DNA from: Echinometra lucunter | Lineage: Eukaryota; Echinodermata; Echinoidea; Camarodonta; Echinometridae | Reading direction: 5' to 3' | Assembly (NCBI GenBank): GCA_029962745.1 | Contig: CM057157.1 | Coordinates: 25,959,751 to 26,023,750 of the forward strand | DNA: 64,000 bases | Part shown: positions 3,505-60,102 of the stretch, piece after piece | Numbering within the stretch: position 1 is the first letter of the stretch | Layout of the letters: each line of letters begins with the position of its first letter | Notes under the pieces: model-generated | The model's database searches: none | What the model saw: only the letters and a program-made list of their open reading frames with translations | What the model was told of the DNA's origin: nothing | Made by a program: the position numbers and the translations under genes

Positions 3505-3579
3505 GGGGTGAGAGGGAGGTGGAGGAGGTGGTGGAGGAGGAGGAGGATGAGGAGGTCGGAAGAGGTCAAAACGAGCCAC

Positions 3580-23721: not shown

Positions 23722-25395
23722 GTAAGATAAGATAAGATAAGATAAGATTTATTGACTCTATAGACCCCATCTCGAGGTATGAGAGTACAAACAAAGAAAC
23801 GTATTTACAATTACATACATACATACATGCCTACATACATTATAAATGTGAATACATAGGTTGAGTATAGATAAAAATATCGTATATAAGAGAACATTTT
23901 ACAAGACTAGCCGTTCTGGCTGTTTGACTATTCTACCACTACGAATACATATAGTTCTATTTTGATTACTTTCTGTACAATGGCATTCTTTACACTTTAC
24001 ATTTGGAGTCTGAGTAAATTGCATCATAATAGTCCTGGCAAATTTTGCTATTTTCTTTAGCTGGCAAGTATTTGCAGAATTGAATAATTGAGATATTTGT
24101 AAGCTACATGGTCTACTTTTATACATTTTGGGTGATAAATACATGCGTCTGAAAAAAGGACATTCAAAGAGGTAGTGAAACTCATCACTTGAATTTGAAG
24201 ATACGCAGTGTGAACACTGCATTTCATCTATCAAACTTGTTTACAGGTAATGCATGCGACATACGTCGGATTTTGCTGAGAATAATAATATCTTTTTGGC
24301 TTAGGACAAAAAGTATCTTTCAATCTTCAAATCATTTTAAACATTCTGTAATTTGTACATATACGATTAGACTACACTGATGATTTCCATTCCTGTTGGA
24401 ACATATCAGAGAGTCTCAATTTTAAAGCATTAAGACAGTATCCATTCAGAACTGTAACGAAGACCCTGAGATAGCCAGACATTCCTTAGGCATGCGTATT
24501 GAAAAGTATCTTCAATAAACTTAAACCTAAGTGATGTGAATGGAGAATTATCTTTATGCATGCACATGCGTAAATTTATGCATGCACATGCGTAAGTTAT
24601 AAAAAATATATATGAATACTTTTATTCCTTCCCTTTAATTCTCACCCCAAATCCGATCATTCTACATTTCACATAGTTTAATATCAGTCCACGACCCGTT
24701 TCACCATACACCATACAGTCGCGTACACTTATTTACATGTAAAATTGTTCTTAGAAACTTTCTATGGAAAACTTCCATTTGATTTATGCATTCAAACCCC
24801 CCAACTTCACTACCATACAAAAGTATAGGTAATACTAAATGGTCAGACAAGAAGCATTGTGTATCAACTGATAGCTGTAATCTTTTTTTTTGGCTTTTTT
24901 TTTTTTTTTTTTTTTTTTTTGCTTTCACCAACATACCTAACCTGTGTAACTTGCTTACGCATTGCTTTTTTAAAGTTACCATTATAATTGAATCTCACGC
25001 CCAGGTAAATAAAATCAATAACTACTTCAATCACGTTACCATCGTAAGTAAAGGTTGGTATTTTTTCTGATTTTCCCTTTGGAGAATAGTCTTAGTTGTC
25101 TTAACAGTTAACTGTCATGTATTACAATAATCTGCTACACCATTCAATGCTAATTGCAAATCTTCCTGACTTTCCGAAAAAATTATAGTATCATCTGCAT
25201 ATAAGAGGCAATATAGTTTTAAAAAGGTCTCTTCTTAGATGGCTACATGCATGAAAATCATTTGCCAAGGAACCCAGTCCTTCGTAGGATGTCCCTATAT
25301 GTTGCTGAAAATCATTCAAATACAAGGCAAATAGCAAGGGGGAGAGGTTCTCTCCTTGACGTACCCCTATGATACATGTAAAGAAATCTGAACAT
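23722..25395 (-). pseudogene. LINE ORF2 3' half (RT catalytic end to C-terminus), decayed
   Basis: On the minus strand the reading order is VNGKCSDFF, GVRQGENLSPLLFALYLNDF (RT motif B), a SADDTIIFSE-type block, FIYLGVRFNYNGNF, LPILLYGSEV, FHRKFLRTILHVNK, and a C-terminal DEFHYLFECPFF block ending near 23899. The element then runs through a short 3' UTR to a (GATAA)n tail at about 23727-23750, as is usual for LINE 3' ends. It is 5'-truncated at 25395. A poly-T run (about 24886-24920) and frameshifts disrupt it. The full-length copy in the duplication is 48866-50505. Confidence 0.82.
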
Positions 25396-28300
25396 TTGCC
25401 ATTGACTGTTGTTATGTTGTTTTATGTGTGTGCATCAGCACTATATTGTTCTGTTATCGTTTAGTGTTCTCCCAAGTCTTCATAGGCCCAATTTGGAACA
25501 ATCTTTTTTTTTTCCAGGGGGGGGGGGGGGTCCACAAATTACAAGCGTTGCTTTTTAGTGTACCCTCCCCCATTTCCATAGAATTAAAAAAAAAAATCTT
25601 TTGATAATTCATTATAATAATACATTTATGTGTACATTGTACTTGTATATAGTTATCAAGAAAACAATGAATGCGTGCATATTATTTTCTGTAATAATAT
25701 TGTAATGCCATTGTTTTTTCTTTCTGATGGAAATGCAATAACTACGAATTGAATTGAATTGAATTGAAATGAATATTTTAGAACTCTTCAAATGATATCG
25801 CTGACCCCTTGACTACTGATTTCTATAATTGCCATAGATCTCATAATATTCACGGCCCCGTTTTATAAAACCGTTATCAATAACAAGTTGCAATAACTGT
25901 TATAAGCTAACTGTTATAAGCTACTGAAATCCTTGCATTTGATTGGCTGAGGGCAAATTCGTCATAGAAATGTGGCCTTTGTATACTGATAATAAGTTTT
26001 ATGAAAAGAGGCCCAGGATAGTTCCTGTATTTGAGTTCAGTAAACTGAACTTCTGAACAGCGCCATCTTTTAACAGGATTTGGGGATGTCATTGCATCTG
26101 ATTTTCATATCATGCATGTTTTGCCCTTGTGTAGAAGCTTAGAATGTACTTGAATTCCATTTCCGACGTTTGCAAGTCAAAGTAAATACTTTGCTGTGAA
26201 CAAAATATCCTCATATTCTTGCTTGTTACAATTCAGACTTAAGTTCAAATTCAGCATGTAATATCAAGTTAAGAAGTACCTAAAGATGGCGCTGCTTCAC
26301 TGTCATTTCAAACCAGTGGGAGAAAGAGTACAGCCAAGCACTTATTATCATTATTATTATTATCATTATCATTATTATCATTTTTATCATTAAATTTTTA
26401 TTATTATCATTATCATCATCATTATCACTACCATTATCATTATTATCATTTTTATTACCATTATCATTATTATTTAATGAAATAAATATTCATGTAAAAA
26501 TAGTGAAGAGGGACACCAATTTTTATTTACTTTTTAATCAACATTTCCCACTTTCTTTGAAACACTTTTTTTTCACAGTGTAACTGCGTTACAAGAAGTC
26601 AACTTTATTGTTCATCTGATTGTTTTCATGTCCATCAAGAAAGTTCACTTTTTTAAAAATTTCATTAAATAAGTTTTAAATTTGTTATTCCATAATTCAA
26701 ACTTTGATTATTTGACAGTCTGCACCTATCATGTATCAGATTGACGATGAAACATAGGTCTTAGAAATACACCTTTAAAACAAATCTAGTCATATTTGAC
26801 TTATTAGTACTGTACTAGTCAAAATTGACACAACTCTAGTAAAATTTGACTAGATCACCTGATCATACAGCACCGGATTATACAACACTAACTTGACTCG
26901 ATTCTAGTGAAATAGACTAAAATTCTAGTAAAAGTTTTGTTTACATTTTTTACTAAAATTCTGATCATTTTCACTAGAATCTAGTCAAATTAGAGTAGAA
27001 TAGAATAAGTGCCCGTGGGATCCGGTCATCTATAGTCAAATTATTTCACTAGAATCTGGTCGTTTTGACCAGATTTGTGTCAAGTTTCAACAGAATAGTG
27101 TTTGTTCTCGCGGGGTCATATGTTAAACGTACTAGAATTCTGGTCATTCTTACTAGAATCTTATCAGTTTTGACTAGAATCTAGCTGGTGCCCGTCTGAT
27201 CCGGTAATCTAGTCAAATCTGGGACTAGATTGCTTTTAGAGTGTATACATGAAGAGCTTATTTCTAAAAGGCGCTAAATCCACTTTGAGAATTTCGAGTA
27301 TATCAAGGATTTTTATTTTCCTTCTTTGAAAAACCAAAGCTTTTTAACAGTTGGAAGTATTGATATTAGACATCTCAAAATGAGAATGAAGAAAAAAAAT
27401 CCTGCATGAGTAATATTTTTTAAAGAATTATTTATATCTTTATACATGAACTCCAATGTTGCGAAAAAAAAATTATTTCCAAAATAAATCCTAGTTAATT
27501 TCGAAAAGGTGCTAAATCTGTGCAAATGAAAAATATAGAAAAATTCTTTTAATAAGTACTACTCATGCAGGATTATTTTCATTCTTATTTGTTAGATCTT
27601 AATGGTGGTACATGCAACTGATCAAAGTTTTGATCTTTCGAAGAAGGAAAACAGTTTATATAAAAATCCTTGATTTACGCAAAGTGGATTCAGCGCCTTT
27701 TGGAAATGAACATAGTTTTTACCCATTTTTTTTTAAAATTCTCCAGAATATTGTTTTAATATTCAGATAAGCCATATTGAAGCCCATATGGAACAGGCAT
27801 CCAGTTCCACCATGTCTACTAATATTTTGGTTTCGGTGAAAAATTGATATTTTATTTTATTTCATTTTATTTTATTTGAAATAAGCTCTTCAGTTCACGA
27901 GTAGGGATGAGGCAGGTGCCCAAGACTTTATTTAAAAAATGCAACTTTGGTAAAGCTATAAGGATAATGCAGTCCAAAAAACCATTAAGAAATAGCGATG
28001 GGATATATTTCATGCTCAAATATAAATCGTTTATTCTATATACACAGAAAACATAGCGTTGTGGAAAAGCATCAGGAAATCAGATTTTTTTTTCTGCAAA
28101 GTTCAGCATGGAAATAATAAAGCGTAAAAGACCTTCATATATTATTCTGAATATAATAATTCTTAAATAACGGTACACAAACTACATGAATCATAGAAGT
28201 AATGCTAAGTACACGCATTTACATTAAGTATATTCAAGTAACAACTTAATCAACTTTTCAACAACAAAAAATCGTCTACACTGCTACACAGGAATTGCAA

Positions 28301-30132
28301 TAACAGTAACCATATTCTGTCAGGCAAGCCAATAAAGAAACTCTCAAATAGCTATTATAAGTAATTTGCATTTTTCATCATCCTATTGCACTATAACTTC
28401 TCTCATTGCTTATCCAATAACCAAAACGAAAATAAGAACCAAATGCTAAAACCAAACTGAGTAATTAACTAATTGAATTACACTTAACGCCCGCTCTGAA
28501 TACAAGCACTTATTCACACTAATATTTCAAATCGCCTATAATAACTCGGTCGACCTACTCAACTGAAACAAACAAAGAAAAAAAAATTATCAAGATGACT
28601 GTCCAAAAGTTTCAATAGAATAACAATCAGAGACATCGTTCTGACAACAGATGGCGCTAGATCACCACACATGACTTGCCACCTGTTGATGCATAATCAT
28701 TTTTTTTTCCCCTTTATGATTCAAAAAACTCTTGTGGGGAAAATCACGGTACATACTCCTAGATGTTTGACATGTAACATTGCAGGTAGGTATCCCCCCC
28801 CCCCCTCTCTTGCCAAGAAATAAATAAATAAAACGAAAAATAAAAAATGCGTTCACATTCTGGTGCATTTTTCACTCCAAAATTCTTTGACGTAAGAAAA
28901 CATCAAAATTTCTTGCATTTTGAATTGTATTACCACATGTGAATTCACTTTTGAGAGATTTATTTCATATCATCAAAATGCCATTTGTGCCCTCCCTCTC
29001 CTCCACTCATGAAAACAAGTTGTCAATTGTTGTTTGATAAAGTAAACAGTTTAAAAAAAACAAAACTATTTTTTTAGTCAGTACTACAAGTATAATTATT
29101 ATAGCACAGAGAAAAAATCATGAAGTATGAAATATAGCAAATATCTTGCATAGTAAACTCAGTGACCTGTGAGACAGACTTCGGTTAGACTAAATGCATA
29201 GGAAGTCAATTGATTTTTTTTATTGTTGCCAAAATCTGCTCCTCTTTATCATGATCATGATTTTCTACAATGATTTCATATGAAAAACAAGCCCGTCGTC
29301 AATTCCATAAACAATTGCACCTTTAGTACTGTAGCTCAACTGAGTTGTCAGTTCTCCAATAATGCAATCATGTTGCAGAAAGACGTTTTAGAGAGAGAGA
29401 GAGAGAGAGAGAGAAAGAAAGAGAAATAACCCAAAGTTTGAAATACATATTGGAAATTTGAAATCAATGTACAACATTTATTGCAACCATAAATAGATAG
29501 TTAATTTCCATTGCAACATTTCTCCCATAGGTAAGATACATGTATTTCTGTTATATTACTTTGCATAAATATGTATATACACTGCAATATTGTACAAATG
29601 CTCCAACTTGGAGCGATTCTCACTAATTAATCTGACTTTGTTCATTATTCCCATGATCATATCAATTTACAAGAGATCTTAATCTCTAAGGTTTACAATA
29701 AAAAAATAACGATATTCATGAATAAACCACTGAATTAATATCAGTGGTAATTCCCGACACAACAGTAATATTTTCATTAGTTTATGTGCACCAGTTCGCT
29801 AAATTTCCAACTAAAATGGAAAAGAAAAGGCGTTTTGGTATAGTGCGCTGTTTTGACTAAATGATACCCTAGTGTATTAATTGAATATAAATAGTTCATT
29901 CTGAAGCGACGATTTACAGATAGCGGACGACGGAATCTATTCGTAAAGCCATACATAGATATATATATATACATATATATGCCTACATCCTACGGAAAGG
30001 CGAATCCTAACAATGAGGTTTATTCCGTCAAATAGAAATTCTACGTCAAGGTGCATTCGACCCTGCGGAAAGGCGAATTTGAACAATAGGCCTATACAAA
30101 GCAAATTCGAACTATAGAAGGATGTGTATTTG

Positions 30133-30142
30133 TATATGTATA

Positions 30143-30190
<48 letters not shown>

Positions 30191-30251
30191 CAGGTAACAT
30201 ATACAAAAGCTTTGGCAACTCTCGTGGAAATATATATATACATATATATAC

Positions 30252-30284
<33 letters not shown>
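30133..30284. repeat. Paired (TA)n microsatellites
   Basis: Two TA-rich blocks (30133-30188 and 30230-30284) flank a unique 40-nt spacer. A third follows at 31005-31044. The poly-Ile/Tyr open frames are artefacts. Confidence 0.9.
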
Positions 30285-30287
<3 letters not shown>

Positions 30288-30334
30288 AAAGATGTCCCCT
30301 CGCAAAACGTGTGCAGTGCTTCATTTTAGTACAC

Positions 30335-30999
30335 AGTGAAAGAAAAATGGAATGAAGCTGACGTAGCTCTCGATCTTGTCCTTTTATTGTAATGGCTAGC
30401 TTTCGGCCAACATGGCCTTCATCAGGTCTGAACAGATAAGAAACGAACAGGCAAAATAATATACACATAGAAGTGATATCAACCACCAATATATATACCA
30501 CCAATTGGTGGTATATAAAATAGTCCTAAGGAGAATGCTTTATCACAATCTTATTCGCAGTGTACCCCTCACCCTCTACTAATCTGATGAGCTCGGTCTA
30601 ATTTCAACCCGAGGTAATTATATTCATTGTATCATTTCTGAATCACCATATTCCTAAGTTGATCAAATATTATTTCCTTATCATTTCGTTATATTTTCTT
30701 TACTTATTTGTTATTTCGACATTAATTGTTCAGTTATGTATCATTATTCCTAAAGTTGATTAAGTATCATTTCCGTATCATTTCGGTATATTATTTTGAT
30801 ATTTAATTGTTCAGTTATGTATCATTATTCCAATTATGTATTATTTCGACATTATTTTGATATTACTTCTATGTGTATATTATTTTGCCTGTTCGTTTCT
30901 TATCTGTTCAGACCCGATGAAGGCCATGTTGGCCGAAAGCTTGCCATTACAATAAAAGGACAAGATCGAGAGCTACGTCAGCTTCATTCCATTTTTCTT

Positions 31000-31004
<5 letters not shown>
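30335..31004. mobile_element. Inverted-repeat element with hammerhead-like motif (possible Penelope-like pLTRs)
   Basis: The 148-nt arms (30335-30482 and 30857-31004) are near-perfect reverse complements, with outer ends AGTGAAAGAAAAATGG and its complement, inserted between (TA)n arrays. The minus strand of the left arm contains CTGATGA, a GGCC/GGCC stem, then GAAA (30401-30426), which is the conserved layout of a hammerhead ribozyme core. The spacer includes a perfect 26-bp palindrome (30492-30517). Penelope-like elements are known to carry hammerheads in inverted or tandem pLTRs; membership is inference, as no RT is present. A copy lies at 55441-56109. Confidence 0.6.
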
Positions 31005-31046
<42 letters not shown>

Positions 31047-31627
31047 GCAAAGTAACACCACCATTGTATGAAACCAAAAAGTGCATTCCATTTGATACCT
31101 CACTCAATATATATCAAGGAAAAATTATTATATATTTTCCTATTATTTTCTTTATATTTTAGCAACTTCAATTTCAAATATCTAAAATTTACAAACAAGT
31201 TTTTTTTTTTTTTTAAATCAAAGTCTTATATGTATATAATATTATAAAGGCTGGACTTGAGTCTGTTCATGACTTACTAAAAATTTTATGTACTTTTTTT
31301 AGGCAGTGGACATTGTTGTAGTACCAATAAATTCATAACTGGGGGGTATTTCATAAAGCTGTTCGTAAGTTACGAACGATTTTACGAACGACTGGAACAT
31401 GTTCTTGGGTGCTATTCAGATTCTCATTCATTTACATGTAGCATAAGAAGGTATCACCAGTCGTGCGTAAAGTCGTTCGTAACTTACAAACAGCTTTGTG
31501 AAACACCCCCGGGTCGCAGAGTCACAGAGTGTGAAGCATGTCTCATCTTGCTTGCAGCGGCACGACCTGTATGTTGGCATAACTCTGACATGAGATGATG
31601 TTTGAAGGTTTGCATGGTGGTACGGAT

Positions 31628-32046
31628 ATTCGTAGAAAGGGTTTACGGTTCACCATGTGGTAAGTCCTAAAGGACTATAGATAAAGTGGATAGAGATGGA
31701 GGTGAAATAGAGAGGCGAGAAAGCAGGAAAGTTGGAGGATAGAGTATCTTTCTGAAAACTGGGTGAAGTCCTAAAAAGGACTGTAAACCAGAAGAGGTGG
31801 GAGGATTGAGTTGGTGAAGAGATGAGGAGGCTTGAGTCGGCGAGAGGTAAGAAGACTTGAGGCAGGCGGAGAAGGAGAGAAGACTCGACGTTCCGGGCAG
31901 CTTGACTTCACCCAGCTTTCAGAAAGATACTCTACCCGCCAACTTTCCTGCTTCCTCACCTCTCTATTTCACCTCCATCTCTATCCACTTTATCTATAGT
32001 CCTTTCGGACTTACCACATGGTGAACTGTAAACCCTTTCTACGAAT
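31628..32046. mobile_element. Snap-back element (same family as 36876-37413)
   Basis: The ends are inverted copies of ATTCGTAGAAAGGGTTTAC, and the arms of about 160-190 nt fold on each other. It is preceded by the companion sequence gtttgcatggtggtacgg that also occurs at the other copy. A duplicate lies at 56751-57170. It is non-coding. Confidence 0.8.
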
Positions 32047-33040
32047 TAACTCTACATATCAGATGACTGTGTACCCTGTTGGCTTTGAGTATTTTGACAG
32101 ATAAGTACCCTGGATGAGTACCCATAGAAGTGGCAGTTATTGTCTTGTCAAATCGTCATTACGGTACTCGACAACTAATGAGAGATTTCCTTGAAGCTCT
32201 CTTTTATATTTTACAAGTATATTCTTACTAGTCGTTGAACAGTAGGCTACAAATTTATTTCGATTTTGCATTGCAACGCCTGTAAAAGGAAAGTTATATT
32301 TGGTAAGATTTTTTTTTTAAATTGAGACTTTGAGAGGGCGCTAGTCGTTGAGGATTCCTGGAAGCAATTGCAAAGAATCATTCCAGGGCCAGGGCCGTGT
32401 AACGTAAAGATAGATTTACCATCCAGTTATGAACATCTGCACTTTAAGCGATTTATTGTATCTCACAGTGCTATGTCTCTGTTAACGTTTACTTCAGTTA
32501 CTACTGATTTGAATGATACATGGTTAAAGGAAAAACGATTAATTTCCGGGAGGTCCATTTAATCTAACTTTTCATGTATATAGGGCATAGTTCTTTTAAT
32601 TATTCTGCAGTGTCTCCTTTTGTCCAATAAAGGAACACTGCATCACATTCCCAAATGAGAACGAGTTGGCCAAACTATACATGCATAGGCCGAAAGATGG
32701 CTCCGATGTTCCTGTTATTTTTTTTTATCACAACAATAGCAAAACTCTGTCTACCGAATGCTAACAGTTCTTTTATCAAAAATCTTAACAACGTATAGGC
32801 AAATGGAAATATGTCGCGATTGACAAACATGGATTTACGTGTGTTAATTTTTCCATGCAGGAGGAATTCAATGAGCGGGGGAGGGAGAAGATGTTCCAAG
32901 TTCTGAACCCTCAGCACCCTCATTCTGATGAACCTTAGGGTCAGGTGCTGAAGTGATAGCAGTTGTCTGTCTGTAGTGGGACGACATTAAGAGGTAAGGA
33001 AACTGTTAACATACATCATACACACATACGGTATATACAG

Positions 33041-33367
33041 TGGGGGCGATTTCATGTCACGAGGGGGGGGGGGGGGGGCGGAAACCCCGAAGGGCTCCAC
33101 CGAAAATATGTTTCGAAAAGTGAGAGGGGATAATTGATATTATGCGAGCGAGCTAAAAATTATTGCAGAAAATAATGAAAAGAAGCCTGATTTTTGCCAT
33201 CAAAATGCATTCTAGGCCTATAAAATATTAAACGGTTGGCCTAAAGTTGGTCAGCTGACTCAAAATTGAAAAATAATATATCAAGCTTTGAAAATCGAGG
33301 GGGACGATCCCCCCCCAAAAAAATCAAGGGGGGACATGTCCCCCCGTCCCCCAGGGATCGCCGCCTA
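33041..33367. mobile_element. MITE with GGCGGCGAT termini
   Basis: The ends are gggggcgatttc and ggatcgccgcc, inverted, around a body with poly-G and poly-C runs that can pair. The C copy (58179-58520) keeps cleaner GGCGGCGAT ends. Confidence 0.6.
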
Positions 33368-33662
33368 TGGGTATATGTACAAATATGTACATGTATAAAT
33401 ATAAATGAAAAGACTTATTCCAAAAGTTGCTAAATCCAGTTTTGACTAAAAATTGATTGTAATGCACCGGTATCCATCATGAGAAGGTGCTCGTGATGCA
33501 GTGAAAAGGAGATAGAAATCAGACACAGAGAAACGAGATAAAGGTTACGTTTATGAAAAAGCTTGTCTAAATAACCAGGTTTTTTAGTGAGGTCTTGAAG
33601 TTACTGAGAGAGGATAGATTACGAATATCTAATGGGAGCTTATTCCATAGGAATGGTCCCGC

Positions 33663-34146
33663 ATATTTTTTTTTCTTTTTTTTTTTAATATTATTCTCAT
33701 TATTTATTATTATTATTAATAACATTATTATTATTATTCAATTCGCACATTATTAGTATTATTCCCTCTTTACTTGATTACTCACTATGAATTCATTATA
33801 TCAATTAACCCGTTTATCATTAACCCATTATGAACCCATTTATGAATGAACTCATTTATCATCATTAATTATTGATTAATTAACCCATTAATCAATCAAT
33901 CCATCTATCATTTCTCACTAATTAATTCGATGTCAATATCACTCTTCCTTTCATTCATCATCATTCACATATGTTTGTGTGTGTATGTGCAGACGTATAT
34001 CTGGTACAATATATGTCTGGGACCGACCTTTAACGTCACCATCCGAAAGACGTGACTGAGACTCGAACCTGCACGGGTCCGGATCAGAGTCAGTTTGTGG
34101 CAGAAGAGCTGCACACGGACGTTACCGCTAGACCAACTCCTGCTCC
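33663..34146 (-). mobile_element. tRNA-derived SINE, present in copy B only
   Basis: In minus-strand sense the head carries a pol III A box (TGGTCTAGCGGTAACG) and B box (GGTTCGAGTCTC), and the element ends in an AT-rich poly-A tail at the left. Copy C has the empty site (at about 58813), and ATATT is duplicated at 33663-33667 and 34147-34151. The insertion therefore post-dates the B/C split. Confidence 0.82.
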
Positions 34147-34637
34147 ATATTGAAATGATCGATCACCCCCAGACTTATGAGTTAGTGATATGGCAAGAAG
34201 AGATGAGCTTGAAGACCTTATAGCCCAGGAGCCTGTCCCGAAATAGTCACCCCATTTTACATATGAAATTTGACCCCTTAAAGTTACTTAGACCATCCAT
34301 AGCATTCGCAAAATGCTTGTCAGACCGAACATATCCGCCGGGGGTAGCCCCCAGGGCCTCCAAAAAAGGGCCCTAAAGTCGGGTTGATTTCACCCCATCT
34401 AACTTATGCACCAAACTTTGTCAGGAGGAAGTTGTATGACTATACATTACCAAAACACAAAAACTGACAAAATTTTCCGTCGGGAGGGGTTGTCAGACGG
34501 CCCCTAAAAAATGACAAAAAATTTTCCATATAAGGCTTGTGTACCAATTTTGTCAGAAGAAAGAGCTATGGCTATACATTCCAAAAATGACCTCTATGAC
34601 CTTTGACCTCATGACCCCAACAATAGCATTATTACCT

Positions 34638-34656
34638 CCCCCCCCCCCCCCCCCCC
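34638..34656. repeat. Poly-C run
   Basis: About 19 consecutive C, matched by a shorter or equal run in copy C. One of about twenty such runs in the window. Confidence 0.9.
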
Positions 34657-34806
34657 GCTCTTCCCCTCCCCTTCCAACACGAAGTTCAATAAGTTCATAA
34701 AATTGAAAGTGCATTTGAACTCTCAGGTGACCATTTCAGAAAATTTAGTATATTAATTTCCCTCAGTTTCCAAGGGAAGGGAGGTTATGTAAAAATGTAC
34801 CTTAAG

Positions 34807-34935
34807 TTACAAACCGAAGTTTTGGAGCCATTCGACAATATGTCCGTGATTGTTGCTTATGGCAAGATCTAAGGGCGTTTCTCCTTCGTTATTAGTTTCT
34901 CCCAAGGTGCAATATTGGGACAATCTTTCCAAGAT
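34807..34935 (-). CDS. CDKN2-like: INK4-type CDK4/6 inhibitor, exon 3 (C-terminal)
   Basis: Encodes residues 123-164 and the TAA stop (34807-34809). A strong acceptor (a pyrimidine-rich tract ending in gtcgtag) precedes ATC at 34935, phase 0, and joins in frame to exon 2. The exon completes ankyrin repeat 4 and supplies repeat 5 (NNEGETPLDLAISNNHGHIV, then EWLQNFGL). Having a fifth repeat makes the protein resemble p18/p19 (CDKN2C/D) more than the four-repeat p15/p16. This exon lies inside the duplicated segment; its diverged twin is at 59971-60102. No clear AATAAA was found close downstream. Confidence 0.9.
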   Translation of the reverse strand: MLERLSQYCTLGETNNEGETPLDLAISNNHGHIVEWLQNFGL

Positions 34936-35508
34936 CTACGACAGTGAAAGAAAAACAAAATCAAGATGAATGCGACTGCGACTCCTACAAAAAAAATTAT
35001 TAGTCTGCCTATGTTCAGTTAAGTTCATGTCGCAAACTGTTCTTGAAATCAATGTATTAACCATGTTAACTAGAAAAGTGTCTGATCGATTTTGTCTCCT
35101 CATAATCAAGTATACAAAATAGTCGAGATGATATGATGATAAAAATGACTTTTTATTTCATGCATACTGACCTTGCAACCTTTGACCTATGAACTCCTAT
35201 ATCTAATGGCTTCATCTCACTATGGTGATGCATACTAGTACCAAGTTTTAAGTTCACACCTCAAATATTTCTTCAGATATTGATGTGAACTGTCGTGAAG
35301 ATCAAACTTATGAGGTCTTTTCTCCAAACAAAATACAATTTTCCTTTGATATTCATGATATTGATATTTATTTTTGTCTGTCTATCTATTGATCTTCCAT
35401 GGGCCCTGAACAAAAACATTACAGCTATGTACAATTTAAAGAAATTTAAAAGACAATCTGAGTGATAAAAAAACAACCATCAAAAATTGGGCAAGTATAA
35501 AGATTAGC

Positions 35509-35542
<34 letters not shown>

Positions 35543-35935
35543 ACTGCACCGATCTCTTGTATTCTTCGAATCCTCTCTTTTCGTTCAACAACATGTTGTT
35601 GTACAAGTTAAATCTCGGACAATTATTGAAGCAACCTGAACATCTTGCTTGAACAATTGAGTACGTATTACATTCCTACGATTATCCGTCAAGAAGTAAT
35701 GGATTATACATTTCTCATGTATCTTGTAATTGGCGTCACCTGCGCCTGAGCGGGGGGGGGGGGGTGAATATGCTTTGGGTATATACAGGTGGATTATTAC
35801 ATCGGGTTCCCCCCCCCCCCCCTCTTTCACCCATCTTTTACGATGAGTGCATTTCAAATTGGAGCAAAGTAAATTTTCCTCTGTATTTTGTTTTGTTTTG
35901 TGTTTTTTTTTTTTTTTGGGGGGGGGGGCTTTTAC
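34936..35935 (-). other. INK4 intron 2 (1000 bp)
   Basis: Bounded by GTAAAA at 35935 and AG at 34936. It contains a 28-nt poly-A run (35514-35541), poly-G and poly-C runs (about 35750-35763, 35810-35822 and 35918-35928), and the right end of the duplicated segment at about 35313. Confidence 0.88.
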
Positions 35936-36163
35936 CTCTGAACCGCGGCCAATGCTGGCTGCGAGGTGTGCGGGAGTGTTCCCCCTGTTGTCCTGAGCCT
36001 GGGCATCGGCGCCGCGTTCGAGCAGGAGAGTGAGGGTATCAAGGCACCCTTGTTCTGCGATGTCGTGAAGGATAGTTTTTTGGACAGCAGCATCGCGAAC
36101 GTTCGGATCGGCATCGTAGTCGAGCAAGATTCTTGCTGTGCTGGGGCTCATGGAGTTCATGAC
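35936..36163 (-). CDS. CDKN2-like: INK4-type CDK4/6 inhibitor, exon 2
   Basis: Has 228 nt and 76 codons (residues 47-122), phase 0 at both ends; acceptor gtcccag|GTCATG and donor CAGAG|GTAAAA. It holds the rest of ankyrin repeat 2, whose first helix is shortened (VMNSMSPSTARILLDY), which is the INK4 hallmark. It also holds repeat 3 (TILHDIAEQGCLDTLTLLLE) and most of repeat 4 (DNRGNTPAHLAASIG). The equivalents of human p16 His83, Asp84 and Asp92 are present (H79, D80, D88). The position of p16 Arg87 is Glu here (E83). The family binds CDK4 and CDK6 and blocks cyclin D activation in the cytoplasm and nucleus, holding RB active. Family assignment is by motif order, length and intron position. 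Confidence 0.92.
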
Positions 36164-36596
36164 CTGGGACACAAGAGCCAATAATGATTAGTTCTCAGCG
36201 GATTAACGCGTTAAATGGTTTACATGAATATTGTTTTGCAGTCTTCATTGCCTCATATTTAGTCGCAGTAATACACATTTATGCATATTCGATTATACTG
36301 GGAGGAAAATTGTGCGATTACAATTGTTTCAAGCTGTAATTATTAGCATTCAAACAATTATTACAGAGTGATACTCTGGCCGAATGACAGGAGTGCATGG
36401 GAAATGTAATTGCTTTAGAAATATAAACGATTAAAAAAAAGCTGTTTAAATGTATTATGAACCAATGAAAATCAACGAAAAGTCAAATCGGATCACAACT
36501 CGAACATTATTGTTAATGAAGAAATGCGGGAGGAAAAAAAGAACAATCATTATTCAGTGTGATGTTATCCATGTTTCTTAGACTTTGGTAATTTAC
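36164..36596 (-). other. INK4 intron 1 (433 bp)
   Basis: Donor CAG|GTAAAT at 36596, acceptor CAG at 36164. Phase 0, falling between Gln46 and Val47, which matches the Gln50/Val51 junction of human p16. Confidence 0.9.
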
Positions 36597-36734
36597 CTGA
36601 ATGGCGGTATAGCCGTAACTGTTGGGCATGTTGACTGTTCCTGGAGGAGTCCGTTCGAGTATTCCGCGCAAGGTCGCGTCGTCTGCATTCACTGCAGCTT
36701 GAGTCATCGCGTTAATCGTTTGCTGATCTGCCAT
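36597..36734 (-). CDS. CDKN2-like: INK4-type CDK4/6 inhibitor, exon 1 (N-terminal)
   Basis: Encodes residues 1-46, starting MADQQTINAM. This ATG (36734) has strong context (G at -3, G at +4). An upstream in-frame ATG at 36767 would add 11 residues (MSTSSVYEAGE) but has weaker context. The exon covers ankyrin repeat 1 and the start of repeat 2, ending NSYGYTAIQ, which closely resembles the end of vertebrate CDKN2 exon 1. The spliced product is 164 residues, against roughly 156-168 in vertebrate INK4 proteins. A snap-back element sits about 140 bp upstream of the start, so regulation may be affected. An alternative reading as a generic ankyrin protein is less likely, given the shortened repeat-2 helix and the intron position. 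Confidence 0.92.
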
Positions 36735-36767
36735 TTCGCCTGCCTCATACACGGACGATGTCGACAT

Positions 36768-36875
36768 CGATGTCGGCAGTCATTCAATCATTTATCCAAG
36801 ATGAACGACAGATTTGAAGCTCCAGCTGTATAAGATATGTATATTCTGCTTAAATTTAAATCCAAACAAAGATGA
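36768..36875 (-). promoter_or_regulatory. INK4 proximal 5' flank
   Basis: About 110-140 bp between the start codons and the inserted snap-back element; likely 5' UTR or core promoter by position only. No TATA box or initiator is distinct enough to call. Confidence 0.35.
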
Positions 36876-37413
36876 TTCGTGGAAAGGGTTTACGGTTCAC
36901 CATGTGGTAAGTCCTGAGGGACTATAGATAAAGTGGATAGAGATGGAGGTGAAATAGAGAGGCGAGAAAGTAGGAAAATTGGAGGGCAGAGTATCTTTCG
37001 AAATCTGGGTGGAGTCCTAAAAAGGACTGTAAACCAGAAGAGGTGAGAGGATTGAGTAGGTGAAGAGATGAGTAGGCTTGAGTCGGCGAGAGGTGAGAAG
37101 ACTTGAAGAGGATTGAGTAGGTGAAGAGATGAGTAGGCTTGAGTCGGCGAGAGGTGAGAAGACTCTCGCCGACTCAAGCCTACTCATCTCTTCACCTACT
37201 CAATCCTCTCACCTCTTCTGGTTTACAGTCCTTTTTAGGACTCCACCCAGATTTCGAAAGATACTCTGCCCTCCAATTTTCCTACTTTCTCGCCTCTCTA
37301 TTTCACCTCCATCTCTATCCACTTTATCTATAGTCCCTCAGGACTTACCACATGGTGAACCGTAAACCCTTTCCACGAATACCCGTACCACCATGCAAAC
37401 CTTCAAACATCAT
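36876..37413. mobile_element. Near-perfect snap-back element with 13-bp target duplication
   Basis: The arms of about 240-260 nt running inward from TTCGTGGAAAGGG and its complement are almost identical in reverse, with the centre near 37130-37150. The flanks carry the same 13 bases, CAAACAAAGATGA, at 36863-36875 and 37414-37426. The right end has the gtaccaccatgcaaacc companion also seen, inverted, beside 31628. It is non-coding; mirror open frames on both strands are artefacts. Confidence 0.85.
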
Positions 37414-37426
37414 CAAACAAAGATGA

Positions 37427-37965
37427 GTTTAAAAAAACAAAAATGACCGAGGCATCGGATTTTCCTTTAACTTAACATGGCTATGGATTAGTAGGAAAAC
37501 AACATTTGTGATCATCTCCAACACATAAATTCAACCAAAAACAAGAGAGCGATTATATAGTTGCAGCTATAGTGACACTTAATGAAACATTAATACATCG
37601 CTTTGTATCTTGACGCAATAGATTCTGTTGACCATGCAGGCGGAAACAAAATCGCTCTTTCAATGTAGATCCGGTTCCTAGTTTTGTAACAACAATCTAG
37701 GGTCCTCTTGATAATTCTTCTTGTCTTCTGTTTTGTGACTGGATCGATGCAACCGATGGTCAGAGAATTCATTCATTGGCAGCTTGCACATTCGCTTTTA
37801 GTACGCACAGAATCGAACAGCAAATGTGATATAAATGTTCCTGGTCAAGTGATGTCAAGCGAAATGTCGGAAACTGTGAAAGCAGCTAGGCGACTGGGTC
37901 AGGTGCAGTGGCATATCCAGCCCTTAGTCTATTCGAAGGAGGGGCAAAACTTCTCAGCTTGCCCT
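37427..37965. other. Non-coding, nothing recognised
   Basis: Mixed-composition DNA with only short open frames. Confidence 0.45.
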
Positions 37966-38100
37966 CAGGAGGTGATAGAGCACTGGTCTCACGATAATCC
38001 TGGGACCTGGGTTCGAAACCAAGTCGGTGTGAGTGCCCTATGCTAGAGTATTAATCCTCCTTACCAGGTCCCTCGAGTAGAACATAAAGTCTTTATAGTT
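37966..38100 (+). mobile_element. tRNA-derived SINE-like head
   Basis: A-box-like GATAGAGCACTGG and B-box GGGTTCGAAACC are correctly ordered and spaced for pol III, but the arms do not form a sound tRNA cloverleaf. Probably the head of a SINE; its 3' end was not delimited. Confidence 0.6.
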
Positions 38101-38334
38101 GGTCCTCTGGCTGCTTACTTTGGAACGTGCATGTTTTCTTAGCAGTCAGGAAAAACAAACCAATAACCGGCATCATCAGTGGGAGGGAAAGAGCTACTTG
38201 AGGACCCTTGTTTGAGAATATGTGCTACTTAATACACAAGTTTGAGAACTCGCATGAACTTGCGATTGCGAACCTGAAATTGTGGCTGGATTTTTCCGTG
38301 GTCAGAAATCTGTTAAAGGTGCAATTGCCTTACT

Positions 38335-38355
38335 CCCCCCCCCCCCCCCCCCCCC
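38335..38355. repeat. Poly-C run
   Basis: About 21 consecutive C, followed by gcccc. Confidence 0.9.
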
Positions 38356-38725
38356 GCCCCATCCTTATTATAAATACGCGAGTGGTCAGGTGAGTCTAGC
38401 GCCCCGCGTCTGGTTAATAATTCTGGGTGATTGCTTGCTTCCCGAACTTACGGAAGAGATCGTGTTATTGTCATGACGGCGAGCCCAAGTTTTTCATTTA
38501 GCGTTACCACTGTTCACTTTGCGCAACATGTCACTGCCAATGCTTGTGCGAGTCAAGGCTTAATTCTACACATATTTATGCAGTATAATCCGGGCTTGTT
38601 GCTGTTGTTGGGGTTTATGTTTGTTTGTTTGTTTGTTTGAGGTGGGTTGTGTGTGTTTTATGTTTTTATTTTTTGGTCTTTTTGTTTGTATTTATTTGGT
38701 GTCTTTTATCGAACTGCTTGTCATT

Positions 38726-38796
38726 TTTCATTACCTTATAACACACAAAACTGTTGTGTATGTGTTCTCTTATTCTTGTGTTATAAGGTAATGAAA
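38726..38796. repeat. Perfect 20-bp hairpin
   Basis: TTTCATTACCTTATAACACA (38726-38745) and its exact complement (38777-38796) flank a 31-nt loop. It may be a tiny MITE or a structured RNA. Confidence 0.8.
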
Positions 38797-39120
38797 TGAT
38801 GTATTTGTGTACAGCACTCCCCCTACAGTTTTTTGTTTTGTTTTGTTTTTTGTTGTTTTTTGTTTGGTTTGTTTTTTTTACGCGGATTACTGCGGCATCA
38901 TTGCAGATTTTGCAAAAGCCTTTTATAAAGATCATCAATAGTCCTGTCAATGCATTCCGTCAAATGACACCACACACCTCGTGCACATGACACTGGTTTG
39001 TCACGCGTGGTAAGCTTGTAGCGCGTCTGCGAATTGAGATCTCCAATTAGGCACAGTGAATGTTCGTTAAATGAAACATAGTTTAATTAGTACTTTTTTT
39101 TTTTACTTCGTTGTAAACAG

Positions 39121-39301
39121 AACACGATAAAAATAACTTTCGAAAAATCAACATAACTGCAATTTCAAAAGCTTATTGTACTGCCCGTACAAATCGCGTT
39201 CGGATTACATAATAAGCCATGAAAATCCGCACATTTCTTAAGGTGCAGGGCTTTTGAAGTTGCCTTTAAGTTGATTTTTCGGAAGTAGTTTTTATCGTGT
39301 T
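39121..39301. repeat. Imperfect 52-bp-arm hairpin
   Basis: Arms 39121-39172 and 39250-39301 (from AACACGATAAAAA inward) pair with several mismatches around a 77-nt loop. Compatible with a MITE or a long hairpin RNA. Confidence 0.7.
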
Positions 39302-39792
39302 ACAATTCTTGATGTAATTTCGATATCATGTCACATGATTTTTGTGCACCTGTTTGTTTGGAGTGTAACAAAATTATGTAGAAACAAGGCCGTACGCAGG
39401 AATTTTTTTCCATGGGGGCAAGAATTATATTCTATATTTGAGGGAACACGCAAGCGAGGGACTCAAGCGACCGAGCGGGAACTTCTGCATTTTTATAATT
39501 GAAACTGAACGATCTGGTGCACAAGGCTTGCACTGCATGTTCAACCAAAATTTCGATTTTAGTATTCCTGTCATTATTCCGAACTTCAAATAAGATAATT
39601 TTACTAGTTTAAACTTTCATATTTAATGCAAAATGCGATTTGTTCGAAAATCGGGTCGCAGTCGGATCGTGTGCGGCGGGCTCAAGGTGCCAGGATATGC
39701 TTGATAAGTTTGTTTTGACGTCAATATGGCCAATAAGGATTCTGGGATATATGAAAGCTGAAGTTTGTTTTAGAAAATGCTTTATCTCCATA

Positions 39793-40061
39793 CACTATGA
39801 AAATGACCGACAAAGAAAGTGGACAAAATAAACAACCTCTCATTCTACCCTTCACAATGGTTCTGGTAGTCAAAAGAACATCCCTTCACTAGTATTATGT
39901 TTAATCATATAGTTCCAGGTGAATATGCATGTGACACTTGTTCCACATATTTTAGATAATAGCAGTGAAGGGATGTTCTTTTGACTACCAGAACCATTGT
40001 GAAGGGTAGAATGAGGGGTTGTTTATTTTGTCCACTTTCTTTGTCCGCCATGTTCATAGTG
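39793..40061. mobile_element. Snap-back element with 98-bp arms
   Basis: Arms 39793-39890 and 39964-40061 are almost exact reverse complements, with a 73-nt loop. Divergence is concentrated at the outer 20 bases. No coding content. Confidence 0.82.
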
Positions 40062-48865: not shown

Positions 48866-49999
48866 GATAAGATAAGATTTATTAACTCTATAGCCCCCTC
48901 TCGAGGTATGAGAGTACAAACACAGAAACGTATTTACAATTACATACAATGTACATGCATACATACATGATAAATGTGAATACATAGGTTGAGTATAGAT
49001 TTTTAAAAAATATATCGTATATAAAGGAACATTTTATGACTAGCCGTTCTGGCTGTTTGACTATTCTACCACTACGAGTACATACAGTTCTATTTTCATT
49101 ACTTTCTGTACAATGGCATTCTTTACTCTTTACATTTGGAGTCTGAGTAAATTGCATCATAATAGTCCTGGCAAATTTTGCTATTTTCTTTAGCTGGCAA
49201 GTATTTGCAGAATTGAATAATTGAGATATTTGTAAGCTACATGGTCTACTTTTATACATATTGGGTGATAAATACATGCGTCTGAAAAAAGGACATTCAA
49301 AGAGGTAGTGAAACTCATCTTTTGAATTTGAAGATACGCAGAGTGAACACTGCATTTCATCTATCAAACTTGTTTACAGGTAATGCATGCGACCTACATC
49401 GGAATTTGCTGAGAGTAATAAAATCTTTCAATCTTCATATCATTATAAACATTCTATAATTTGTACATATACGATTAGACTACACTGATGATTTCCATTC
49501 CTGTTGGAACATATCAGAGAGTCTCAATTTTAAAGCTTTAAGACAGTATCCATTCAGAACTGTAACGAAGACCCTGAGATAGCCAGACATTCCTTAGGCA
49601 TGCGTATTGAAAAGTATCTTCAATAAACTTAAACCTAAGTGATGTGAATGGAGAATTATCTTTATGCATGCACATGCGTAAATTTATGCATGCACATGCG
49701 TAAGTTATAAAAATATATATGAATACTTTTATTCCTTCCCTTTAATTCTCACCCCAAATCCGATCATTCTACATTTCACATAGTTTAATATCAGTCCACG
49801 ACCCGTTTCACCATACACCATACAGTCGCGTACACTTATTTACATGTAAAATTGTTCTTAGAAACTTTCTATGGAAAACTTCCATTTGATTTATGCATTC
49901 AAACCCCCCAACTTCACTACCATACAAAAGTATAGGTAATACTAAATGGTCAGACAAGAAGCATTGTGTATCAACTGATAGCTGTAATCTTTTTTTGGG

Positions 50000-50034
<35 letters not shown>

Positions 50035-50505
50035 TTCACCAACATACCTAACCTGTGTAACTTGCTTACGCATTGCTTTTTTAAAGTTACCATTATAATT
50101 GAATCTCACGCCCAGGTAAATAAAATCAATAACTACTTCAATCACGTTACCATCGTAAGTAAAGGTTGGTATTTTTCTGATTTTCCCTTTGGAGAATAGT
50201 CTTAGTTGTCTTAACAGTTAACTGTCATGTATTACAATAATCTGCTACACCATTCAATGCTAATTGCAAATCTTCCTGACTTTCCGAAAAAATTATAGTA
50301 TCATCTGCATATAAGAGGCAATATAGTTTTAAAAAGGTCTCTTCTTAGATGGCTACATGCATGAAAATCATTTGCCAAGGAACCCAGTCCTTCGTAGGAT
50401 GTCCCTATATGTTGCTGAAAATCATTCAAATACAAGGCAAATAGCAAGGGGGAGAGGTTCTCTCCTTGACGTACCCCTATGATACATGTAAAGAAATCTG
50501 AACAT
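48866..50505 (-). pseudogene. LINE ORF2 3' half, second copy
   Basis: Collinear with 23722-25395, including GVRQGENLSPLLF, FIYLGVRFNYNGNF and DEFHYLFECPFF. A longer poly-T run lies at about 50000-50031. Confidence 0.82.
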
Positions 50506-53500: not shown

Positions 53501-54507
53501 TATTGCACTATAACTTCTCTCATTGCTTATCCAATAACCAAAACGAAAATAAGAACCAAATGCTAAAACCAAACTGAGTAATTAACTAATTGAATTACAC
53601 TTAACGCCCGCTCTGAATACAAGCACTTATTCACACTAATATTTCAAATCGCCTATAATAACTCGGTCGACCTACTCAACTGAAACAAACAAAGAAAAAA
53701 AAATTATCAAGATGACTGTCCAAAAGTTTCAATAGAATAACAATCAGAGACATCGTTCTGACAACAGATGGCGCTAGATCACCACACATGACTTGCCACC
53801 TGTTGATGCATAATCATTTTTTTTTTCCCCTTTATGATTCAAAAAACTCTTGTGAGGAAAATCACGGTACATACTCCTAGATGTTTGACATGTAACATTG
53901 CAGGTAGGTATCCCCCCCCCCCTCTCTTGCCAAGAAATAAATAAATAAAACGAAAAATAAAAAATGCGTTCACATTCTGGTGCATTTTTCACTCCAAAAT
54001 TCTTTGACGTAAGAAAACATCAAAATTTCTTGCATTTTGAATTGTATTACCACATGTGAATTCACTTTTGAGAGATTTATTTCATATCATCAAAATGCCA
54101 TTTGTGCCCTCCCTCTCCTCCGCTCATGAAAACAAGTTGTCAATTGTTGTTTGATAAAGTAAACAGTTTAAAAAAAAACAAAACTATTTTTTTAGTCAGT
54201 ACTACAAGTATAATTATTATAGCACAGAGAAAAAATCATGAAGTATGAAATATAGCAAATATCTTGCATAGTAAACTCAGTGACCTGTGAGACAGACTTC
54301 GGTTAGACTAAATGCATAGGAAGTCAATTGATTTTTTTTATTGTTGCCAAAATCTGCTCCTCTTTATCATGATCATGATTTTCTACAATGATTTCATATG
54401 AAAAACAAGCCCGTCGTCAATTCCATAAACAATTGCACCTTTAGTACTGTAGCTCAACTGAGTTGTCAGTTCTCCAATAATGCAATCATGTTGCAGAAAA
54501 GACGTTT

Positions 54508-54546
<39 letters not shown>

Positions 54547-55265: not shown

Positions 55266-55301
<36 letters not shown>

Positions 55302-55440
55302 CAGGTAACATATACAAAAGCTTTGGCAACTCTCGTGGAAATATATATATACATATATATACCCATATATATATATATATATATATATATAAAGAAAGAT
55401 GTCCCCTCGCAAACGTGTGCAGTGCTTCATTTTAGTACAC

Positions 55441-56109: not shown

Positions 56110-56123
56110 TATATATATATATA

Positions 56124-56166
<43 letters not shown>

Positions 56167-57170: not shown

Positions 57171-58178
57171 TAACTCTACATATCAGATGACTGTGTACCC
57201 CTGTTGGCTTTGAGTATTTTGACAGATAAGCTACCCTGGATGAGTACCAATAGAAGTGGCAGTTATTGTCTTGTCAAATCGTCATTACGGTACTCGACAA
57301 CTAATGAGAGATTTCCTTGAAGCTCTCTTTTATATTTTACAAGTATATTCTTACTAGTCGTTGAACAGTAGGCTACAAATTTATTTCGATTTTGCATTGC
57401 AACGCCTGTAAAAGGAAAGTTATATTTGGTAAGATTTTTTTTTTAAATTGAGACTTTGAGAGGGCGCTAGTCGTTTGAGGATTCCTGGAAAGCAATTTGC
57501 AAAGAATCATTCCAGGGCCAGGGCCGTGTAACGTAAAAATAGATTTACCATCCAGTTATGAACATCTGCACTTTAAGCGATTATTGTATCTCACAGTGCT
57601 ATGTCTCTGTTAACGTTTACTTCAGTTACTACTGATTTGAATGATACATGGTTAAAGGAAAACGATTAACTTTCCGGGAGGTCCATTTAATCTAACTTTT
57701 CATGTATATAGGGCATATGTTCTTTTAATTATTCTGCAGTGTCTCCTTTTTGTCCAATAAAGGAACACTGCATCACATTCCCAAATGAGAACGAGTTGGC
57801 CAAACTATACATGCATAGGATGAAAGATGGCTCCGTTTTGCTTCCTGTTATTTTTTTTTTTCTCACAACAATAGCAAAACTCTGTCAACCGAATGCTAAA
57901 CATTCTTTTATCAAAAATTTAACAACGCATAGGCAAATGGAAATATGTCGCGATTGACAAACATGGATTTACGTGTGTTAATTTTTGTTATCTTCCATGC
58001 AGGAGGAATTCAATGAGTCGGGGAGGGAGAAGATGTTCCAAGTTCTGAACCCTCAGGCACCCTCATCCTGATGAACCTTCCGGTCAGGAACTGAAAGTGA
58101 CAACAGTTGTCTGTCTGTAGTGGGACGATATTAAGAGGTAAGGAACTGTTAACATACATCATACACACATACGGTATT

Positions 58179-59794: not shown

Positions 59795-59970
59795 AACAAT
59801 AGCATATTACCTCCCCCCCCCCCCCCCCCGCTCTTCCCCGCCCCTTCCAACACGAAGTTGGATAGGTTAATAAAATAGTGCATTTTTACTCTCAGGTGAC
59901 CATTTCAGAAAATTTAGTATATTAATTTCCCTCAGTTTCCAAGGGAAGGGAGGTTATGTAAAAATATACC

Positions 59971-60102
59971 TTAAGTTACGACCGAAGTTTGGAGCCATTC
60001 GACAATATGTCCGTGATTGTTGCTTATGGCAAGATCTAAGGGCGTTTCTCCTTCGTTATTAGTTTCTCTCAAGGTGCAATATCGGGACAATCTTTCCAAG
60101 AT
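59971..60102 (-). pseudogene. Diverged duplicate of INK4 exon 3
   Basis: The acceptor (ctgtcatag) and the ankyrin repeat 5 core are intact. Compared with 34807-34935 it has Gln to Arg and Gly to Arg changes near the start. Indels close to the end replace NFGL with TSVVT before a new TAA, giving 43 codons instead of 42. Its exons 1 and 2 would lie beyond gap 2 and are not seen. It could be a live paralogue's last exon, an allele, or a dead fragment. Confidence 0.8.

What the first reader, a model, noticed from the sequence alone, without database searches (positions are those of the whole stretch)
34807..36734. A complete INK4 (CDKN2) type CDK inhibitor gene in a probable invertebrate deuterostome
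Three exons splice in frame to 164 residues with five ankyrin repeats, the shortened repeat-2 helix (VMNSMSPSTARILL), NSYGYTAIQ at the repeat 1/2 junction, and LHD...LDTL in repeat 3 as in p15/p16/p18/p19. INK4 genes are generally described as vertebrate innovations; my unchecked recollection is that the sea-urchin cell-cycle gene survey reported INK4 and ARF as absent. If the organism is an echinoderm, the RB/cyclin D/CDK4/INK4 brake is older than vertebrates.
Basis: partly seen in the sequence, partly recalled or inferred. Interest (0 to 1): 0.94.

Follow-up and report, generated by a model that had tools for sequence, protein, structure and literature searches.

The report
INK4 brake with a SOCS tail
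This stretch, likely from a sea urchin, holds a predicted gene related to the vertebrate INK4 tumour suppressors (p15, p16, p18, p19), and a fourth exon missed at first reading likely adds a SOCS box, as in starfish and brachiopod relatives, so the INK4 brake probably predates vertebrates and may descend from a ubiquitin-ligase adaptor.

Summary
The three exons are there and splice in frame to 164 residues. The protein is INK4-related: ankyrin repeats, the INK4 repeat-1/2 signature, the Asp that meets CDK4/6, and a phase-0 intron where p16 has one. But the gene is likely not complete at 164 residues. The supposed stop overlaps a possible splice donor, and a fourth exon 1.8 kb downstream encodes a tail found in five of the six other echinoid-type proteins fetched. 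That tail is a weak SOCS box in urchins but a clear one in three starfish and the brachiopod Lingula. Such proteins are already auto-named 'CDK4 inhibitor C/D-like', so pre-vertebrate INK4 is not new as an annotation; the INK4+SOCS architecture and what it implies stand out. Best reading: an adaptor that grips CDK4/6 like INK4 and hands it to an Elongin BC-Cullin ligase; vertebrates would have lost the SOCS box. Binding, ubiquitination and the splice in this species are untested. Rival: in this lineage the SOCS exon is decaying and the short, pure INK4 form works.

The parts
36597..36734 (-). Exon 1, codons 1-46, ankyrin repeat 1, ends ...GYTAIQ
   Evidence: donor CAG|GTAAAT; phase 0; same place as the p16 intron after codon 50
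35936..36163 (-). Exon 2, ankyrin repeats 2 to 4 (VMNSMSP...LHDIAEQGCLDTL...GRGSE)
   Evidence: acceptor CCCAG|GTC, donor GAG|GTAAAA; phase 0
34815..34935 (-). Exon 3, ankyrin repeat 5 (ILERLSQ...WLQNF); alternative end 34811 with the second donor
   Evidence: two possible donors, G|GTTTGT (34815) or TTT|GTAACT (34811)
34807..34809 (-).
32675..32970 (-). Exon 4, likely SOCS box (tail 32965-32849: QLLSLQHLTLRFIRMRV...LEHLLPPPLIEFLLHGK), then a run-on of about 57 residues to the stop; alternative start 32966
   Evidence: tblastn of P0002, E 3e-4, 46% over 39 columns; both donor/acceptor pairs give the same frame, 260 aa; Pfam SOCS_box E 0.042 for the tail alone, 0.94 in the joined protein
59989..60102 (-). 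Duplicate of exon 3 in a tandem segmental duplication
57991..58050 (-). Duplicate of the second half of exon 4, frame broken upstream, ends in a stop after ...LLHGR

Best explanation
The locus is a gene, likely of a sea urchin, of four predicted coding exons whose protein joins five INK4-type ankyrin repeats to a likely SOCS box, and it would work by gripping CDK4/6 through the ankyrin face as INK4 proteins do and, through the SOCS box, likely bringing that kinase to an Elongin BC-Cullin ubiquitin ligase. Shown: exons 1-3 and their frame, the exon 4 sequence, its likeness to the tails of relatives, the INK4 signature and the intron position shared with p16. Predicted: the exon 3-4 splice in this species, the fold, the SOCS identity in urchins. 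Inferred and untested: CDK4/6 binding, ligase recruitment, degradation of the kinase. In evolution, vertebrate INK4 proteins would be the SOCS-less descendants of such an ankyrin-SOCS protein.
For: Ankyrin part: 125.4 bits against an HMM of 18 vertebrate CDKN2 proteins, over its whole length, versus 29.5 for ASB9; the junction signature is present in 12 of 12 invertebrate INK4-like proteins, 17 of the 18 HMM rows, and none of the 110 generic rows (109 ranked lowest, ASB9 among them, plus P0183); p16 columns Q50, D74, H83, D84, G89 are identical in 12 of 12 invertebrate and 10 of 10 vertebrate rows. p16 D84 meets CDK6 R31 (PMC10985988, passage) and CDK4 R24C is INK4-insensitive (PMC11734941, passage); this genome's CDK4/6 keeps that Arg and has the CDK4/6-type PVSTIRE helix. 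The exon 1/2 border equals the p16 intron after codon 50 (c.150+2 splice mutant, PMC2500185 passage; p16 letters checked against 1a5e). Structure: the model of the S. purpuratus orthologue (pLDDT 93.4) has p18INK4c as its first eight PDB matches; a starfish model built without vertebrate INK4 rows gives p18/p19 INK4 as the first five and ASB8-Elongin B/C at rank 18 over 239 columns. SOCS part: a tail directly after repeat 5 in 10 of 12 invertebrate INK4-like proteins; Pfam SOCS_box above its curated cut-off in Patiria (4e-10), Asterias (8.5e-8), Acanthaster (2.3e-7) and Lingula (1.4e-5); the six urchin-type tails match the starfish SOCS boxes by profile, E 5.2e-5, score 20.1 versus at most 11.35 in 100 column shuffles. 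P0003 is one open frame of 242 aa on a 3300-base contig, as expected of a spliced transcript (inference).
Against: The window's own SOCS score is below Pfam's cut-off (14.5 bits for the tail alone, 10.2 in the joined protein, against 23.5), and the whole Lytechinus protein shows no SOCS_box match at E up to 1. The Cys of the classic BC box (recalled) is Thr here, Val or Ala in the other urchin-type tails. Against ASB9+Lingula SOCS boxes the tails do not beat the best of 100 shuffles (13.6 versus 14.55), and a PDB profile search with them found no SOCS chain. Exon 4 runs on past the place where the relatives stop, which may mean decay or an assembly error. The paralogue on contig C1853 has exons 1-3 but no exon 4 was found between exon 3 and the contig's end, and two relatives, P0124 and P0233, have no SOCS box. 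Clade with vertebrate INK4: SH-aLRT 0. One generic ankyrin, P0183 (115.6 bits), outscores the brittle-star protein (106.2) on the INK4 HMM. Asp at the D84 place also occurs in 52 of 364 generic repeats. CDK6 H100, a contact by recall, is Leu in this genome.
Confidence: 0.5

Rival explanations
1. Plain INK4 after all: in this lineage the SOCS exon is decaying, transcripts keep intron 3, and the 164-residue product that stops in the donor region inhibits CDK4/6 by binding alone, as in vertebrates.
For: A stop sits at the second possible donor; BC-box Cys lost, exon 4 run-on; the tandem copy has a broken exon 4 and none was found for the C1853 paralogue; short relatives P0124 (139 aa) and P0233 (144 aa) exist; record names with 'isoform X1/X2' hint at alternative ends.
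Against: A tail of this kind is kept in five other echinoid-type proteins, from Diadema to camarodonts; the exon 4 frame here is open through the whole box, LPPP and EFLL included.
Confidence: 0.28
2. An ASB-like ankyrin-SOCS adaptor for another target; the INK4 likeness is common descent of the ankyrin domain, but CDK4/6 inhibition arose only in vertebrates.
For: ASB-like architecture; R87 of p16 is Glu in 11 of 12 invertebrate rows against Arg in 8 of 10 vertebrate rows; CDK6 H100 not kept; dN/dS near 2 between the two copies in this genome (interval 0.92-6.70) suggests fast change unlike a core brake; the AU test of a SOCS-INK4+ASB9 clade is borderline, p 0.0504.
Against: On the INK4 HMM 125.4 bits versus 29.5 for ASB9; D84 kept 12 of 12 and CDK4/6 Arg31 kept; intron shared with p16.
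Confidence: 0.17
3. Pseudogene or assembly artefact in a repeat-rich, duplicated stretch.
For: 97.6% tandem duplication and runs of N nearby; exon 4 run-on.
Against: Exons 1-3 are intact, with an orthologue 65% identical, relatives in three more named echinoids and a second copy with open exons 1-3 on C1853.
Confidence: 0.05

Closest known systems
Vertebrate INK4 proteins p18INK4c/CDKN2C and p19INK4d/CDKN2D (also p15, p16)
   Same: Ankyrin repeats with the N-x-[FY]-G-R-T-A-[IL]-Q-V-M junction, HD in repeat 3, intron after the Q of that junction (p16), same predicted fold in two relatives
   Different: The vertebrate sequences read or aligned here end after repeat 5 or 4; here a SOCS-like exon follows; R87 is Glu. 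That vertebrate genes lack the later introns is recalled
Echinoid 'cyclin-dependent kinase 4 inhibitor C-like / D-like' (S. purpuratus, L. variegatus, Diadema; automatic names)
   Same: Nearest relatives, 207-213 aa, with the same kind of tail
   Different: Their names and precomputed Pfam lists do not mention the SOCS-box tail
Patiria, Asterias, Acanthaster and Lingula INK4-like proteins with PF07525
   Same: INK4-type ankyrins followed by a SOCS box
   Different: Their SOCS boxes reach Pfam's cut-off (LCRL in starfish); the urchin ones have drifted
ASB family (ASB9, ASB8)
   Same: Ankyrin repeats then SOCS box; ASB8-Elongin B/C matched over 239 columns by the starfish model
   Different: ASB9 scores 29.5 bits on the INK4 HMM and lacks the INK4 signature; other ASB proteins were not compared by sequence

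Membership tests
INK4 (CDKN2) | Four or five ankyrin repeats (PMC10985988 passage) | tested here: met
   Ankyrin by Pfam; five by alignment with p18
INK4 (CDKN2) | Repeat 1/2 junction signature and shortened first helix of repeat 2 (recalled feature) | tested here: met
   Signature in the window and 11 other invertebrate rows; four-residue helix 44-47 in the model of the S. purpuratus orthologue, not of the window protein itself
INK4 (CDKN2) | Asp that contacts CDK6 Arg31 / CDK4 Arg24 (p16 D84) | tested here: met
   contact from PMC10985988 passage; Arg kept in this genome's CDK4/6
INK4 (CDKN2) | Phase-0 intron between repeat-1/2 junction Q and V (p16 codon 50) | tested here: met
   against PMC2500185 passage and p16 letters; p18 and p19 introns only recalled
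INK4 (CDKN2) | Clusters with CDKN2 in a tree | tested here: inconclusive
   One branch with 15 vertebrate rows, 84/0, 86% of 200 bootstrap trees
INK4 (CDKN2) | Reciprocal best match in its genome | tested here: inconclusive
   Coelacanth p18 hits long ankyrin frames first; window exons not in the listed rows, and the list is cut; short exons are at a disadvantage
INK4 (CDKN2) | Inhibits CDK4/6 | not testable with these tools
   No binding or activity data
ASB (ankyrin + SOCS box) | C-terminal SOCS box | tested here: inconclusive
   Window 14.5 bits against a cut-off of 23.5; four relatives above the cut-off; profile match to starfish boxes
ASB (ankyrin + SOCS box) | BC box with Cys (recalled feature) | tested here: not met
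   SLQHLT here, V or A in the other urchin-type tails
ASB (ankyrin + SOCS box) | Ankyrin domain related to ASB proteins | tested here: inconclusive
   Only ASB9 compared: 29.5 bits against 125.4 for the window on the INK4 HMM; grouping with ASB9 p-AU 0.0504

The most novel reading that the evidence does not exclude
INK4 tumour suppressors descend from a bilaterian ankyrin-SOCS ubiquitin-ligase adaptor that bound CDK4/6 and had it degraded; vertebrates kept the grip and dropped the SOCS box, and sea urchins are caught in the act of doing the same (one copy with a drifting box, one broken, one without).
Probability: 0.35. Interest if true: 0.88.

Novelty: new variant of a known kind. Interest (0 to 1): 0.72.

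Why it matters
INK4 genes are among the most often lost human tumour suppressors, and textbook INK4 acts only by binding (both recalled). If the older form carried a ubiquitin-ligase adaptor box, the brake once worked at least partly by destroying CDK4/6, the vertebrate form is a stripped-down derivative, and starfish or urchin proteins become natural models for targeted CDK4/6 degradation. It also makes the age of the RB/cyclin D/CDK4/INK4 circuit testable outside vertebrates, back to brachiopods.

Tried and rejected
Taken and dropped: (1) 'complete at 164 aa' - dropped. (2) Generic ankyrin fragment - dropped on signature, HMM, fold of relatives and intron, though by HMM score alone the gap to the best generic is small. 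(3) DMRT neighbour as conserved INK4-DMRTA synteny - the DM exon is real but its class could not be resolved (45, 45, 45, 44 of 56 identical to recalled human DMRT3, DMRTA2, DMRT1, DMRT2), and the ELAV and DMA searches of the genome did not complete. (4) PDB profile search with the urchin tails: a single match, lentiviral Vif, E 6.8, not significant. (5) Among the 50 rows shown for the starfish model one ASB chain appears in the Foldseek list (9ogd) and none in the second-look list, which barely tests the tail. (6) Literature: (search listings only) showed no paper on an echinoderm INK4 or an INK4 with a SOCS box in the held open-access library; most subscription papers are not held. Papers seen: passages only of PMC2362344, PMC10985988, PMC11734941, PMC8166319, PMC2500185.

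Rows left out: the tree used 11 of 12 invertebrate rows (P0124 left out), 13 of 18 HMM-training vertebrate rows plus human p16 and p19, 22 generic rows chosen by score and span, and two pieces of ASB9; the HMM test used rows from the listings (120 shown of 1503 and of 502), not all hits. Of the 99 top-ranked rows of that test (vertebrate CDKN2 and unnamed pieces) 76 carry the signature; of the 23 without it, 16 start at profile position 30 or later and 7 at position 1. The self-comparison of the window set 24001-40000 against 49001-64000, so the duplication may reach further left.

Full report
Where it is. The nearest proteins are S. purpuratus P0002 at 65% and the unnamed P0003 at 57%, then Lytechinus and Diadema; the tree puts the window with P0002, P0003 and Lytechinus (99/95). 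I take it as a camarodont sea urchin; the species was not identified.

The observation. On the minus strand, exons 36734-36597, 36163-35936 and 34935-34807 splice in frame, phase 0 at both junctions, to the 164 residues described. Pfam calls ankyrin repeats.

What was missed. P0002 is 207 residues long and goes on for about 40 residues after repeat 5. tblastn of P0002 on the window finds this tail at 32965-32849 on the same strand, 46% identical over 39 columns, E 3e-4. Exon 3 has two possible donors (after 34815 or 34811) and exon 4 two matching acceptors four bases apart; either pair gives a 260-residue protein in the same frame. The TAA taken as the stop overlaps the second donor, so it counts only if intron 3 is retained. 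After the box the frame runs on for about 57 residues; in the tandem copy a stop follows directly after LLHGR, and the Lytechinus protein ends at ...LHGR.

What the tail is. Alone, six echinoid-type tails each match one Pfam family, SOCS_box, all below the curated cut-off: E 1.2e-4, 1.7e-4, 2.5e-3, 0.01, 0.042 (window), 0.25. In the whole proteins the match is weaker (E 0.003 to 0.94) and for Lytechinus absent at E up to 1. The third protein search, with the urchin alignment, brought three starfish proteins and one from the brachiopod Lingula with the same INK4-type ankyrins; in these four the SOCS box is above the cut-off, E 4e-10 to 1.4e-5. Urchin tails match the starfish boxes by profile (E 5.2e-5; 20.1 against at most 11.35 in 100 shuffles), and ASB9+Lingula boxes less clearly (E 9.9e-4; 13.6 against at most 14.55). 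The classic BC-box Cys (recalled) is Thr in the window. I read the urchin tail as a drifted SOCS box. Two of the 12 invertebrate INK4-like proteins, P0124 and P0233, have none.

Is the ankyrin part INK4? An HMM of 18 vertebrate CDKN2 proteins gives the window 125.4 bits over its whole length, other invertebrate INK4-like rows 106 to 150, the best generic 115.6, ASB9 29.5. The junction signature is in 12 of 12 invertebrate INK4-like rows, 17 of the 18 HMM rows, 76 of the 99 top rows (many of the rest lack the N-terminal part), and none of 110 generic rows; it was written from these sequences, so it is descriptive. p16 columns Q50, D74, H83, D84, G89 are invariant in 12 invertebrate and 10 vertebrate rows; Asp at the D84 place is not rare in generic ankyrins (52 of 364). 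p16 D84 meets CDK6 R31 (PMC10985988, passage). This genome's CDK4/6 keeps that Arg, has PVSTIRE, keeps D102 and D104, but has Leu for H100. The exon 1/2 border falls at the p16 intron after codon 50 (PMC2500185, passage; taken to use the 156-residue numbering). The tree groups 11 invertebrate and 15 vertebrate rows (84/0; 86% of bootstrap trees); a grouping with ASB9 instead is borderline (p-AU 0.0504). Against: coelacanth p18 searched in this genome hits long generic ankyrins before these short exons.

Structure. The S. purpuratus orthologue is predicted at pLDDT 93.4 with a four-residue helix opening repeat 2 and three helices after repeat 5. Its first eight PDB matches are p18INK4c; by Z, p18 leads at 24.0 (1.2 A over 154) but DARPins tie within 1. 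That alignment held vertebrate INK4 rows; a starfish model built without them (pLDDT 82) again gives p18/p19 INK4 first (E 1.9e-10) and ASB8 bound to Elongin B/C at rank 18 over 239 columns, rmsd 6.5; there too DARPins tie by Z. The window's own spliced protein was not folded.

Copies. A tandem duplication, 97.6% identical (at least 24.0-33.7 kb to 49.1-58.8 kb, then about 34.1-35.3 kb to 58.8-60.5 kb), carries a second exon 3 and a broken exon 4; it stops at a run of N at 60457. Contig C1853 holds a copy with exons 1-3, 127 of 162 residues identical; no exon 4 was found from there to the contig's end, only a weak match on the other strand (E 0.069). Between window and C1853 copies dN/dS is 1.97 (bootstrap 0.92-6.70), intron 1 has 390 of 417 identical; replacement changes exceed intron divergence in exon 2 (27 of 175 against 27 of 417, P 9e-4) but over the three exons together only at P 0.054.

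Mechanism. By the INK4 residues and the SOCS box, the likeliest working is CDK4/6 capture plus hand-over to a Cullin ligase. Capture is inferred from conserved contacts, hand-over from the box; neither is shown. The main rival is the short form.

Novelty. That urchins have INK4-like genes is already in automatic annotation. In the literature searches named under Tried and rejected I found no paper on the SOCS box or on the descent it implies.

Noticed in passing
window 2965-3609 (-): Exon with a DM DNA-binding domain (Pfam PF00751, E 9.6e-23), i.e. a DMRT gene about 30 kb from the INK4-like gene. I recall (no call) that human CDKN2A/B neighbours DMRTA1 and CDKN2C neighbours DMRTA2; if this is a related DMRT it would be conserved neighbourhood.
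   Followed up: partly
window exons 1-3 against L014 2742-5597: dN/dS about 2 (0.92-6.70) between the two copies in this genome, strongest in exon 2, where replacement changes exceed intron divergence: unexpected for a core cell-cycle brake.
   Followed up: partly
window 24001-33667 and 49134-58817: Tandem segmental duplication, 97.6% identical over a 9.76-kb alignment; 24001 is the edge of the stretch compared. May be recent or a haplotype assembly artefact.
   Followed up: partly
window 17443-17942 and 60457-60956: Two runs of 500 N; the second starts where the duplicate's similarity ends, just beyond its exon 3, where its exons 1-2 would be expected.
   Followed up: no
window 36871-37414: A repeat also found at 56.7-57.0 kb, its two halves in opposite orientation, i.e. 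an inverted repeat just upstream of the INK4-like gene.
   Followed up: no
L027-L030 (G000:C1:56005000-56044600): CDK4/6 locus with several exons present twice about 12.1 kb apart: a partial internal duplication or assembly duplication.
   Followed up: no
P0002, P0003, P0006, P0009, P0011, P0124-P0127, P0141 and the window: p16 R87 is Glu in 11 of 12 invertebrate INK4-like rows (Ala in P0233), a group difference that could bear on CDK binding.
   Followed up: no
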